From positions 1 to 64,000 of the forward strand of contig NZ_SBFF01000002.1 in NCBI RefSeq assembly GCF_004151485.1: a DNA stretch of 64,000 nt, in the 5' to 3' direction. The position numbers were made by a program, and so were the translations under genes. Under the pieces are notes generated by a model that was given only the letters and a program-made list of their open reading frames with translations, made no database searches and was not told the DNA's origin. The stretch comes from Sphingosinicella sp. CPCC 101087. GTDB lineage: Bacteria; Pseudomonadota; Alphaproteobacteria; Sphingomonadales; Sphingomonadaceae. Below, one piece after another: positions 43,885 to 52,368 of the stretch. Position 1 is the stretch's first letter. Each line of letters starts with the position of its first letter.

Positions 43885-44199
43885 TGCGCTCCTCGGGGCC
43901 ATGGTCCCGCAGACGTGGCTGGAGTCGTTTCCCGAAGCTTCGTTCCAGGCGGCAACATCAGTTCGTGAGCGTTTTTCGCGCGTGCCGCCTGGCCCACCGA
44001 CCAGGTTTCTGGAGGCGACCAGGCCGGTCGGCCAAGGAACTTCGTTGAGCGCAAGCTTCAGAACCGACACGCGGCCCAGCTCGACAAGTCTGCGGACTTC
44101 TGAACATCGGACGCCGGCATCCGGTGCGAGGGCGGCAATTGTCAGTCTAGCGAACAATCTGGACTTGACCCGGGTGGTGTGTTAGTCCAGCACTACGCA
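43885..44199. other. gene-less stretch between the kinase and GntR genes (315 bases)
   Basis: No supported gene. The reverse strand carries a frame with a faint MerR-like helix-turn-helix pattern (LTIAALAPDAGV), too short and without further likeness to call. The right end holds the inverted repeat in front of the GntR gene. Confidence 0.4.
44159..44190. promoter_or_regulatory. inverted repeat operator candidate before the GntR gene
   Basis: CTGGACT at 44159-44165 and AGTCCAG at 44184-44190 form a perfect 7-base inverted repeat around an 18-base centre that also holds a TTGACC -35-like box (44165-44170). It ends ten bases before the GntR start codon, the position expected of an autoregulatory operator. 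No convincing -10 box is seen. Confidence 0.4.
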
Positions 44200-44544
44200 A
44201 TGAACGAAGAGCGCCCAGTCTATCTCCGCCTGCGAGATCGCATTGCCGCCATGATCCTCGACGGACAGGTGCGCGACGGCGACCCGCTCCCTTCGGTGCG
44301 CAGCCTGGCGGCGGATTTCGGAGCCAATCCTCTTACGGTCGCAAAGGCCTATCAGACCTTCCAGGAGGAGGGGCTCGTGGTGGTGAAGCGCGGGGTCGGC
44401 ATGTTCGTCGCCGCAGGGGCGGCCGATCGTCTGCGCGCCTCCGAGCGTAAGGACTTCCTCGAGAGAAGATGGCCGCGCATCGTCTCGCACATGCGGCGAC
44501 TCGGGCTCGACGCTCAGGATCTGGTCGAGCGTGCGCTGACCTGA
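44200..44544 (+). CDS. GntR family regulator, YtrA subfamily
   Basis: 114 residues, the short YtrA type: a winged helix (VYLRLRDRIAAMILDGQVRDG, LPSVRSLAADFGANPLTVAKAYQTFQEEGLV) and a two-helix tail. This subfamily usually controls a neighbouring ABC exporter; none is present here. The ATG at 44200 begins at the family N-terminus (MNEERPVYLRLRD) and lacks a clear Shine-Dalgarno site, so translation may be weak or leaderless. A GTG seven codons earlier lies inside the inverted repeat and is less likely. Confidence 0.9.
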   Translation: MNEERPVYLRLRDRIAAMILDGQVRDGDPLPSVRSLAADFGANPLTVAKAYQTFQEEGLVVVKRGVGMFVAAGAADRLRASERKDFLERRWPRIVSHMRRLGLDAQDLVERALT

Positions 44545-44623
44545 GCTCGCCTGCGAAATGCGGGCGCCTCGGCATTCGCGGCAGAGTTCGCGGAATGCGC
44601 GCGCGGATGAGTTACCTGCCGCG

Positions 44624-44671
44624 GAAAGGACCACGATCCTTTCGGCAGAAAATTTCGCCGGAAGGATCGTG
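44624..44671 (+). other. competing inverted repeats after the GntR gene (attenuator-like)
   Basis: A 15-base stem with one G-T wobble joins 44632-44646 (CACGATCCTTTCGGC) to 44657-44671 across a 10-base loop. The same TCCTTTC (44637-44643) can instead pair with GAAAGGA at 44624-44630. Two exclusive hairpins sharing one strand is the arrangement of attenuators and switches. It is also a possible terminator of the GntR gene, but no T run follows. Confidence 0.5.
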
Positions 44672-44726
44672 CGGCTCCTGTAACAATCGAAACAATATTC
44701 TCCATGTCCCGGCATCCGGCTGAAAC

Positions 44727-44825
44727 CTGGCGAGGCCAGAGCGGCTGCGACCGCCGGCGCGGGGCACGACATGCCCCCCCGTACGCCCCGGGCCGGCGGT
44801 TGCCTGAAGAATCGGTGGGCCCGAT
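44727..44825 (+). other. structured leader upstream of the 39-residue peptide gene
   Basis: Three further stems lie in a row: CTGGC/GCCAG (44727-44739); a long GC stem of 12 pairs with one wobble (44747-44758 with 44792-44803), extended after a single G-G mismatch by six more pairs (44760-44765 with 44785-44790); and ATCGG/CCGAT (44811-44825), which ends just before the ribosome site at 44827-44836. The spacing suggests a folded RNA leader. I do not recognise a known riboswitch or small RNA family. Confidence 0.5.
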
Positions 44826-44839
44826 CAAAGGACGAGAAT

Positions 44840-44959
44840 ATGCATCCGTTTCGCGCCTTCCTGCTCTCCTTCGCCGCCGGACTGGCGGTCCTTTTTGCTG
44901 GCCATGGAGCCATCTCCGTCGCGTTTGCCGAGCCGCCGCCGGACCGGATCACCGTCTGA
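44840..44959 (+). CDS. small membrane or secreted peptide (39 aa), unrecognised
   Basis: 39 residues: a short basic start (MHPFRAF), one hydrophobic segment (LLSFAAGLAVLFAGHGAISVAFA) and a polar tail (EPPPDRITV). The segment could be a membrane anchor or a signal peptide cleaved after FA. AAGGACGAG lies 4-12 bases upstream of the ATG, a strong site for so small a frame. It follows the run of stem-loops and stands between the GntR regulator and the MliC-like gene. Family unknown. Confidence 0.55.
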   Translation: MHPFRAFLLSFAAGLAVLFAGHGAISVAFAEPPPDRITV

Positions 44960-45050
44960 ACCTTGCCTCGAGCATCATGCGCCGGCCGCGTCGCTTGATT
45001 TCGTCCTTGCGCTGCCGCACCATCGATACCTGAGCTGAAGGGAGGAAGCG

Positions 45051-50376: not shown

Positions 50377-52368
50377 TCAGCGCGGCTTGTGCTTCGCTTC
50401 GGAGGCCGTGGGCAAGGTGAATCGGAAGATGGCGCCGCCGCCCGGGCGATTCTCTGCCCAGATTTTCCCCCCGTGCAGCTCGACGATGGTTCGACTGATC
50501 GGAAGGCCGATCCCCATTCCGGCGCTCTTGGTCGTCATGAAGCGTGAGAACAGATTGCCGAAATGCTCCGGCCTTATCCCCGGGCCGTCATCGGCGACCG
50601 CGACCTCCACCATGTCCCCCATGGCGCGGGTCGAGAGGACGATCTCGCCTTCAGGGTTTTGCTCCATCGCGTCGATCGCGTTTCGGATAAGGTTGATCAG
50701 GACCTGCTGGATCTGGATCCGGTCCGCGTGCACGCATCGCGCCGCCGGATCGAGCTCGAGCCGGTGGCTTATCCCCAGCGAGCGCTCGTCGACGAAGCCG
50801 AGCACGCTCGCTTCCTCGATCAGCCGAGGAAGATCCTCGACGGTCACCGCCACCGCGCCGCGCGACACGAGTTCCCGCAGGCGCCGGAGGATCTCGCCGG
50901 CACGCTGCGTCGCCGAGCCGGCCGATTCGAGCGCCGCGACGAGCTCGACCGCCTGATCCGTCTCCGCGTCGACGAGCCGTCTTGCACCACTGATGAAATT
51001 GCTGGCCGCGGTGAGCGGCTGATTGAGCTCGTGCGCGAGAGTCGAGGCCATCGCGCCCATCGCGCTGAGGCGCGAGACATGGATAAGCTCGGACTGCATC
51101 CGGATTATCTCTTCCTCGGCGCGGTTGCGCTCGGTGACGTCCGCCATCGCACCCACGGCCCGGAGGGCACGTCCGTCCGCATTGCGGATGATGAACCCGC
51201 GGTCGAGAATGTCGGCATAGCCGCCGTCGCTGCGCTGGAACCGGTAGCTTGCCGACCAGTGACTGCGATGCCCGTGAAGCGCCCGGCGAAAACTTTCGGA
51301 AATCCGCTCACGATCGTCGGGATGGAGGCGGGTCACCCACCATGACAGGCGGGTATGGCCGATCGGCGCCTCGGGGGAGCCGAAGATCCTGGCGCTGTTG
51401 TCGCTCCAGTCGAGTATGTCGTTGTCGACGTCATAGTCCCAGACGGCATCGTTGGTCGCCTGGACCGCCAGCCGGTAGCGCTGCTCGGCGTCACGCCGGG
51501 CCTGCTCTGCCTGTCTCTCCTCATGTATGTCCTCGCTGACCCCGTACCAGCGGACGATCCGTCCGGCCGGGTCTCGGAGAGGTGCCGCGCGCAGCCGATA
51601 GAAGCGATAGTCCCCGCCGCGCACGACGAGCCGACACTCCGCGCTATAGGGCTCGCCGGTCGCCACCGCCTCCATCCAGCTCGATTCGATCCGCTCGCGG
51701 TCGTCGGGGTGGATCGCCAGGCTCGGCTCGACCGTCGGATCCATCCCGGTCACTTCGGCGTAGCGTGGGCTCAGCATCAGTCCGCTGCCGTCCGGCTCCA
51801 CTGACCAGACGATCTGGCGGGTCAACTCCAGCGTGAAGCGGTGCAGCTGCTCGCTCTCGCGCAGCCGGCTTTCGGCCGCGTAGCGCGCCTGCTCCGCCTC
51901 TTGCTCCTCATGGACGTCCTGGGTCAGGCCGTACCAGCACAGGATCCGCCCGTCCTCGCTCCGTTCGGCCACCGCCCGCGCGAGCGCCATCCTTACCGCT
52001 CCGTCCGCGCGGAGGCTGCGGAATTGCACGAACAGCTTGTCGCCGGTCCGGAGGCTGTGGGCCCAGGCCTCCTGGAAAAGCTCTCGATCCTCGGGATGGA
52101 TCGCCTCGATCCATGCTCCGCCCAATAACCTGTCTTCCGGGATGCCGGTCAGCGGCGAAAAGCCCGAGCTGATCGCGATGAGTCGGCCTTCGGAATCGGC
52201 GTACCATGCCAGCTGTCCGCTGATCGCGGCCGAGATCCGGTACATCTTCTCGCTGCACCGCAATCGCGCAACCTCGGCCTCGAGACGGCGAAGCTCCGAG
52301 CGCAGGGCGTCGGAGTCGAGCCCTGCTGTCGCCTTGCTGCCCTGCGCGCGCGAGGCGCTCATCTTCAT
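50377..52368 (-). CDS. multi-PAS sensor histidine kinase, FixL-like
   Basis: 663 residues, soluble. A short N-terminal coil is followed by three PAS domains (about 45-155, 170-285, 300-415), each ending in a PAC-type segment (DVHEE, DIHEE, DVTER). The kinase core is the FixL/NtrB type with H446 in [15 protein letters not shown], then [20 protein letters not shown] and [16 protein letters not shown]. The PAS domains carry HPDDRE, common in PAS_3, and I see no clear haem-binding pattern, so oxygen sensing is not implied. Its start overlaps the stop of the fixJ-like gene (ATGA), an obvious cognate pair. Confidence 0.93.

What the first reader, a model, noticed from the sequence alone, without database searches (positions are those of the whole stretch)
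44624..44959. Chain of strong stem-loops ahead of a 39-residue membrane peptide gene
Five potential stems lie in the 200 bases before the small gene. They are two mutually exclusive hairpins sharing TCCTTTC (44624-44671), a 5-pair hairpin (44727-44739), an 18-pair GC stem with one wobble and one mismatch (44747-44803), and a 5-pair stem touching the ribosome site (44811-44825). A tandem AACAA-tcga-AACAA lies near 44683. No protein gene explains this. It could be a cis-regulatory RNA, a small RNA, or a peptide-toxin-like unit with a blocked ribosome site.
Basis: partly seen in the sequence, partly recalled or inferred. Interest (0 to 1): 0.62.

Follow-up and report, generated by a model that had tools for sequence, protein, structure and literature searches.

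The report
Two-component-regulated promoter for membrane peptide
The sequence ahead of this tiny membrane-peptide gene is mainly a promoter shared with other small envelope genes and probably switched by a bacterial sensor/regulator pair, with one conserved hairpin at the expected start of the message.

Summary
The stems and the 39-aa gene exist as described (start codon 44840); the + strand folds better than 100 of 100 shuffles. But the key element is the AACAA-tcga-AACAA repeat. It is the core of a ~67-bp promoter (44677-44743): GNMACA-N3-GNMACA, CGRCAT-N4-SNGNNAC, then a -10-like CYAGA. The composite pattern occurs 16 times in 26 congeneric genomes, reversed control 0. A 23-site profile hits strongly in 7 of 26 genomes, the same 7 that encode one OmpR-family response regulator at 80% identity or more. 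In 4 of the 5 of these where the sequence ahead of its PAS hybrid kinase is present, a full site lies there; the fifth (G019) keeps only the first half. All 3 regulator homologues found outside the genus have sites at their loci that were not used in the profile. Of 29 targets examined, 14 are hydrophobic peptides of 61 aa or less. Of the stems, only 44747-44803 is conserved, in 1 of 6 other peptide loci, at the same distance from the promoter. Best reading: a two-component-controlled promoter with a 5'-terminal hairpin, not a riboswitch or toxin.

The parts
44200..44544 (+). gntR-family (short, YtrA-like by recall) regulator gene upstream; syntenic anchor
   Evidence: Pfam GntR E 3.1e-16; homologue at E 1e-30 or less in 23 of 26 genus genomes
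44548..44566 (+). GC hairpin just after the gntR stop, possible 3' end of gntR mRNA (inferred)
   Evidence: 7 pairs in the fold; no T run by eye
44621..44671 (.). overlapping inverted repeats (the two mutually exclusive hairpins); possible insulating terminator (inferred); not conserved
   Evidence: no counterpart in L074 and L073
44677..44743 (+). regulon promoter, match to profile R1 (itself one of the 23 training sites)
   Evidence: 52 bits, E 3e-15 in the 64-kb window, E 2.2e-13 in the whole genome
44708..44715 (+). CCCGGCAT, third conserved block (consensus CGRCAT)
44720..44726 (+). CTGAAAC, fourth conserved block
44736..44740 (+). CCAGA, -10-like block with the A (44738) found in 23 of 23 aligned sites and 21 of the 24 unfiltered hits
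   Evidence: function inferred
44747..44803 (+). long GC stem-loop, predicted to sit at the 5' end of the peptide mRNA; conserved in G024
   Evidence: same offset (+68) from the motif in both genomes
44811..44825 (+). 5-pair stem before the ribosome site; not seen in relatives
   Evidence: by eye
44827..44832 (+). Shine-Dalgarno-like AAAGGA
   Evidence: direct reading
44840..44959 (+). 39-aa membrane peptide gene
   Evidence: found downstream of gntR in 7 of 26 genus genomes; pS > pN in 21 of 21 pairs; best 19-residue hydropathy 1.9
44995..45023 (+). TTGATT-N17-CACCAT, likely separate promoter of the MliC-like gene
   Evidence: direct reading; similar strings in L054, L055, L005 and L002
45051..45485 (+). 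MliC-like (lysozyme inhibitor family) gene, next gene downstream
   Evidence: Pfam MliC E 5.7e-6

Best explanation
The interval between gntR and the peptide gene holds a promoter controlled by a two-component system. An OmpR-family response regulator (G000:C34:193000-193716), partnered with a PAS hybrid histidine kinase without an obvious membrane span, binds tandem half-sites GNMACA-N3-GNMACA and the CGRCAT/SNGNNAC blocks at 44680-44726 and recruits RNA polymerase to a weak -10-like CCAGA at 44736-44740. The transcript would start near 44748, so that the stem 44747-44803 is at or next to its 5' end, where it most likely shields the message from 5'-end-dependent decay. The message makes a 39-aa membrane peptide. 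The hairpins upstream of the promoter belong to the gntR mRNA end or are inert. Shown by computation: recurrence, fixed architecture, co-occurrence with the regulator, adjacency to its operon in several genomes, sites at out-of-genus homologues. Inferred: direct binding, activation rather than repression, the start site, the role of the 5' hairpin, the peptide's function.
For: Composite pattern: 16 places in 26 genomes versus 0 reversed; the 12-mer ACAATYGAMACA alone: 24 versus 2. Blocks at fixed spacing; the A at +55, not a search criterion, is in 23 of 23 aligned sites and 21 of 24 unfiltered hits. Profile R1 hits in G000, G001, G006, G008, G009, G019, G024 with best E 4.6e-9 or lower, the same 7 genomes with the regulator at 80-100% identity; the other 19 of 26 show only homologues at 52% or less. 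In G000, G001, G008 and G024 a full site lies ahead of and divergent from the kinase gene of that operon and precedes a 39-50-aa peptide gene (kinase domains). The three genomes outside the genus with a 61-65% homologue each have a match at its locus, none in the training set: E 9.8e-9, 3.2e-6, 1.6e-5 and 1.6e-5 in 36 kb; in two of them the site faces an outer-membrane-type gene (YadA-like; beta-barrel). Controls: 80 gntR loci, 474 kb, gave only L074 (the G024 locus itself, a training site) and one E 0.059 fragment; 24 loci of more distant paralogues gave one E 0.004 fragment. The regulator has Response_reg and Trans_reg_C domains; its best NCBIfam model is OmpR, below cut-off; 2 of the 4 OmpR sites tabulated in PMC3050692 contain TGTAACA (passages).
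Against: No expression or binding data. Profile and co-occurrence were developed in one genus, and relatedness makes 7 of 26 less than independent. In G019 the 353 bases ahead of the kinase are present but keep only the first two half-sites, without the downstream blocks (L306, R1 fragment E 0.021); G006 and G009 could not be judged (contig ends in L303, L305). The 12-mer alone is also enriched in the wider family (97 places outside the own genome versus 21 reversed) without the composite in the 29 loci inspected, so its genus-wide control overstates the case. One of the L302 sites overlaps the end of the kinase gene, and in L300 the gene served is unclear. The control loci mostly reach only 1.5 kb from the paralogue. 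The 9-bp spacing of the first two half-sites is shorter than the 10-bp sub-elements described for OmpR. In G016, G021 and G003 the same peptide has a different upstream region, and in G010 and G017 it follows gntR at -4 and 19 bases, so the peptide does not depend on this control.
Confidence: 0.75

Rival explanations
1. The stretch is a cis-regulatory RNA: mutually exclusive hairpins and the long stem control termination or translation of the peptide gene.
For: z -4.37 on the + strand; the long stem with a TGCCCCCCC loop is conserved in G024 at the same distance from the promoter.
Against: The other stems have no counterpart in G024 and G016; those at 44621-44671 and 44727-44739 lie upstream of the predicted start; no Rfam match; the pattern for the long stem occurs in 2 of 26 genomes only. 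Two sequences allow no covariation test.
Confidence: 0.15
2. The shared promoter is read by an ECF-type sigma factor (GAAAC-N16-CGRCAT) rather than through an OmpR-family regulator.
For: The exact 16-base spacing of GAMAC and CGRCAT resembles ECF promoters (recalled, not tested).
Against: The conserved blocks continue upstream (GNMACA repeat) and downstream to the A at +55; sites track and adjoin a response-regulator gene.
Confidence: 0.1
3. Co-occurrence of promoter and regulator is only shared descent, and another regulator binds the site.
For: All genus sites come from related genomes; other OmpR-family paralogues are present in all 26; G019 lacks a full site ahead of the kinase.
Against: Full sites adjoin this regulator's operon in 4 genus genomes and sites lie at its homologues' loci outside the genus; none above E 0.004 at 24 paralogue loci, though these are short.
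Confidence: 0.12
4. A type I toxin-like unit: a membrane peptide with a blocked ribosome site and an antisense RNA.
For: Short hydrophobic peptide; small stem next to the Shine-Dalgarno.
Against: One DNA copy in the genome, constant position after gntR in 7 genomes; no - strand promoter-like site close by (consensus scan only); the stem is not seen in relatives.
Confidence: 0.03

Closest known systems
EnvZ/OmpR regulon of enteric bacteria
   Same: OmpR-family DNA-binding domain; tandem half-sites, some with TGTAACA (PMC3050692, passages)
   Different: Kinase here is a PAS hybrid, not EnvZ; conserved G positions are 9, 22 and 11 bases apart; many targets are tiny peptides; OmpR model cut-off not reached
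CenKR of Rhodobacter sphaeroides
   Same: OmpR-family system with envelope targets and direct-repeat sites
   Different: Motif TGA-N8-TGA (0 of 23 sites); the authors could not identify CenKR homologues in Sphingomonadales (PMC9275681, passages)
ChvGI of Caulobacter and Sinorhizobium
   Same: Alphaproteobacterial envelope system with a DNA-binding response regulator
   Different: Motif TTGC-N3-GCAA in 0 of 23 sites; GCC-N8-GCC in 6 of 23, not in the conserved blocks (motifs from PMC9731502, passages)
MgrB/SafA-type small membrane proteins under two-component control (recalled)
   Same: Small single-span peptides induced by a two-component system
   Different: No sequence relation tested; feedback on the kinase not tested
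5'-terminal stabilising stem-loops such as that of E. coli ompA mRNA (recalled)
   Same: Strong stem at the expected 5' end of a membrane-protein mRNA
   Different: Start site here is only predicted; decay not measured

Membership tests
OmpR/PhoB-family two-component regulon | regulator with receiver and winged-helix Trans_reg_C domains | tested here: met
   Response_reg 3.1e-28, Trans_reg_C 1.6e-22
OmpR/PhoB-family two-component regulon | adjacent histidine kinase | tested here: met
   PAS, HisKA, HATPase_c, Response_reg in the gene just upstream in L230 and in L234, L236, L304, L306, L301, L302; GAF and PAS in L300
OmpR/PhoB-family two-component regulon | direct-repeat sites upstream of several genes | tested here: met
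OmpR/PhoB-family two-component regulon | phosphorylation-dependent binding and regulation | not testable with these tools
   needs bench work
OmpR proper (equivalog) | score above NCBIfam NF007005 cut-off | tested here: not met
   236.1 bits versus 331
CenR regulon | TGA-N8-TGA motif | tested here: not met
   0 of 23 sites (3 of 23 have TGA-N6-TGA), both strands; motif from PMC9275681
ChvI regulon | TTGC-N3-GCAA (Caulobacter) or GCC-N8-GCC (Sinorhizobium) | tested here: not met
   0 of 23 and 6 of 23 sites; motifs from PMC9731502
Known Rfam cis-regulatory RNA | gathering-score match | tested here: not met
   0 in the window; best near the site E 0.18
Type I toxin-antitoxin | antisense RNA and toxic peptide | tested here: inconclusive
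   no - strand sigma-70-like site close to the gene; toxicity not testable

The most novel reading that the evidence does not exclude
An undescribed sphingomonad two-component system (PAS hybrid kinase plus OmpR-like regulator) whose output is largely a battery of dissimilar membrane or exported peptides of 61 aa or less, and which has captured an older gntR-linked peptide by placing its promoter together with a 5'-terminal hairpin between the two genes; the peptides would act as envelope tuning factors or feed back on signalling.
Probability: 0.3. Interest if true: 0.66.

Novelty: new member of a known kind. Interest (0 to 1): 0.5.

Why it matters
It turns an unexplained structured intergenic stretch into a testable regulatory hypothesis with a candidate regulator, a motif and a list of targets, many of them tiny peptides that annotation easily misses. 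It also shows a conserved small gene whose upstream control differs between close relatives: directly behind gntR, behind another upstream region, or behind this two-component promoter.

Tried and rejected
REP-like or mobile repeat: the stretch has no second copy in its genome (19 weak-hit loci folded, which gave the first clue to the motif in L048). Plasmid relatives: none. Rfam: none. The 12-mer outside the genus: 103 places in 199 family genomes including 6 in the own genome, 21 reversed; 0 of the 29 loci fetched outside the own genome had the CGRCA block at the right place. CenR and ChvI as the binder: motifs do not fit. BvrR (PMC10538546, passages): no resemblance noticed, not tested. Palindromic (CRP-like) reading of TGTNNCAATTGNNACA: the conserved positions fit a direct repeat better (my reading). 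A general 5'-UTR hairpin in the regulon: of 15 leaders taken, one was too short; besides the two of this peptide (z -3.1, -2.8) the 12 others ranged from z -4.0 to +0.5, four of them with at most -1.1 kcal/mol, so it is not general. A paper search for 5' stem-loop stabilisers returned nothing; that idea rests on recall. Searches (listings only) showed no paper that describes this system or motif; that is the extent of the not-in-print statement.

Rows dropped: of the 24 hits, five (L166, L169, L177, L178, L179) were left out of alignment A2 by eye because the downstream blocks were missing or poor; four sites were added, 23 in all. The column counts left out six (those five and L167), 18 rows. 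One search looked at 29 of the 45 R1 matches, those with fetched DNA except L274 (G004, E 0.005). Searches gave the peptide in a wrong frame; repeated in the right frame (nothing but one E 0.068 match). In one search only 7 candidates per genome were scored, so homologues may have been missed.

Full report
What was checked. The sequence features are all there. The + strand of 44545-44860 is more structured than 100 of 100 shuffles. The peptide ORF is 44840-44959. It is not alone: a homologous peptide follows gntR in 7 of the 26 genus genomes (found by a motif search downstream of gntR in the 23 genomes where gntR was found, so more divergent copies could be missed). Named relatives with it are Sphingosinicella terrae, Sphingosinicella sp. 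LHD-64 and a MAG. Synonymous differences exceed non-synonymous ones in 21 of 21 pairs, in some only slightly.

The upstream region is not constant. In G010 the peptide start overlaps the gntR stop; in G017 it is 19 bases away; in G003 and G021 100 and 124; in G000, G024 and G016 295, 292 and 361. The stems at 44621-44671 and 44811-44825 have no counterpart in G024 and G016. G016 has its own, different palindromes (by eye). Only the long stem is shared, with G024: its 5' arm is identical and the loop keeps TGCCCCCCC; the 3' arm differs but still pairs. A pattern for it occurs in 2 of 26 genomes, once in each. With two sequences there is no covariation test.

The recurrent promoter. One weak match in the own genome (seen) showed the tandem AACAA repeat ahead of another gene. 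The 13-mer with up to one mismatch gave 7 places in the genome, control 0. ACAATYGAMACA gave 24 places in 26 genomes against 2 for the reversed pattern; in 199 family genomes it gave 103 against 21, so part of the excess is not specific to this promoter. Alignment without gaps exposed further blocks at fixed distance: GNMACA at -3 and +6, CGRCAT at +27, SNGNNAC at +37, and an A at +55 inside CYAGA-like sequence. Numbering is from the first A of ACAATY, window 44683. The composite pattern gave 16 places against 0. The A at +55 was not a criterion and is in 21 of the 24 unfiltered hits. I read the +53 to +58 block as a degenerate -10 element; this geometry, a direct repeat ending about ten bases before the -10, recalls PhoB-type promoters (recalled). 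The start would be near 44748.

The regulator. Fetching the surroundings of motif genes showed in G000, G024 and G008 that a 39-50-aa peptide gene with the promoter is divergent from a PAS hybrid kinase and an OmpR-family regulator; G001 shows the same order. The G000 kinase has no strong hydrophobic stretch (best 19-residue mean 1.49). The regulator at 80% identity or more is in 7 of 26 genomes; the profile R1 (70 positions, 23 sites, sequence only) has strong hits in the same 7 of 26, plus one fragment at E 0.005 in G004. By labels alone, 1 of 657,800 assignments gives this match (1.5e-6), but relatedness makes that figure too strong. Against it: in G019 the 353 bases before the kinase ORF keep only TGTAACAATTGACAC-like half-sites without the rest; G006 and G009 could not be judged because contigs end there.

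Outside the genus. Among 397 family genomes 4 had a homologue at E 1e-80 or less: G000 and three outside the genus at 61-65%. All three outside loci contain R1 matches, four in all. In L301 the site is between the kinase and a divergent YadA-like gene; in L302 one is at the start of the long kinase ORF and faces a divergent beta-barrel gene, and another overlaps the end of the kinase gene ahead of the regulator; in L300 the site lies in the long kinase ORF region and the gene it serves is not clear. Negative controls gave nothing of comparable strength, though the paralogue loci are short. These three loci were not used in building R1 and are the best test of the link.

The regulon. Of 29 R1 loci examined (of 45 matches), 14 have a candidate first gene of 61 aa or less with a hydrophobic stretch and a Shine-Dalgarno-like sequence (L267-L272, L275, L277-L279, L281, L282, L290, L294, my reading of the table). 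Others include an L,D-transpeptidase in G000 (YkuD), globin-like proteins in G000 and G024 (110 residues of the former match a flavohemoprotein model at E 6.6e-9, far below its cut-off, and no Pfam family), and uncharacterised proteins. For several of the 29 no clear gene start was listed. By eye the small peptides fall into at least three dissimilar groups.

Mechanism. Phosphorylated regulator binds 44680-44726, RNA polymerase uses the weak -10 at 44736-44740, and the mRNA begins with the stem 44747-44803. In G024 the stem starts at the same offset, +68, although the distance from motif to start codon differs (157 versus 247 bases), which ties the stem to the promoter and mRNA 5' end rather than to the ribosome site. 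A role in protecting the 5' end is therefore my preferred inference; attenuation is less likely because no T run follows. Leaders of other targets vary widely, so the stem is a property of this gene, not of the regulon. The MliC-like gene downstream seems to have its own promoter.

Verdict. The stretch is best explained as a promoter of an OmpR-type two-component regulon, undescribed as far as searches show, in Sphingosinicella and relatives. It is a new member of a known kind; its unusual side is the number of tiny peptide targets.

Noticed in passing
window 51562-51599 (-): Partial, GC-rich match to the promoter profile, E 0.001; probably chance.
   Followed up: no
window 44995-45023: TTGATT-N17-CACCAT before the MliC-like gene, with similar strings in four relatives; likely its own promoter.
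   Followed up: partly
window 44165-44186: TTGAC...TGTRTTAS just before the gntR start is shared by the own locus and the six relatives (checked); candidate gntR promoter and autoregulatory site.
   Followed up: partly
L159/L178 (G000:C41:236349): ACAATTGAAACA ahead of a 53-aa membrane-type peptide but without the downstream promoter blocks; a further repeat lies upstream.
   Followed up: partly
L230 4918-5841 (-) and L234 6587-7621 (+): AurF-like (diiron) protein gene directly downstream of the motif-driven peptide beside the regulator operon (Pfam AurF 4.1e-7 for L230; L234 by similarity of sequence).
   Followed up: partly
L162, L163, L173, L185: Leaders of one peptide group share a small CAGCC-loop-GGCTG (or GGTTG) hairpin shortly before the Shine-Dalgarno.
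   Followed up: partly
L002 (G016), gntR-peptide gap: Different palindromes, including GGCAAGGCA-TGCCTTGCC and a CATCCCGGACTTGATCCGGGAT element, fill the equivalent gap.
   Followed up: no
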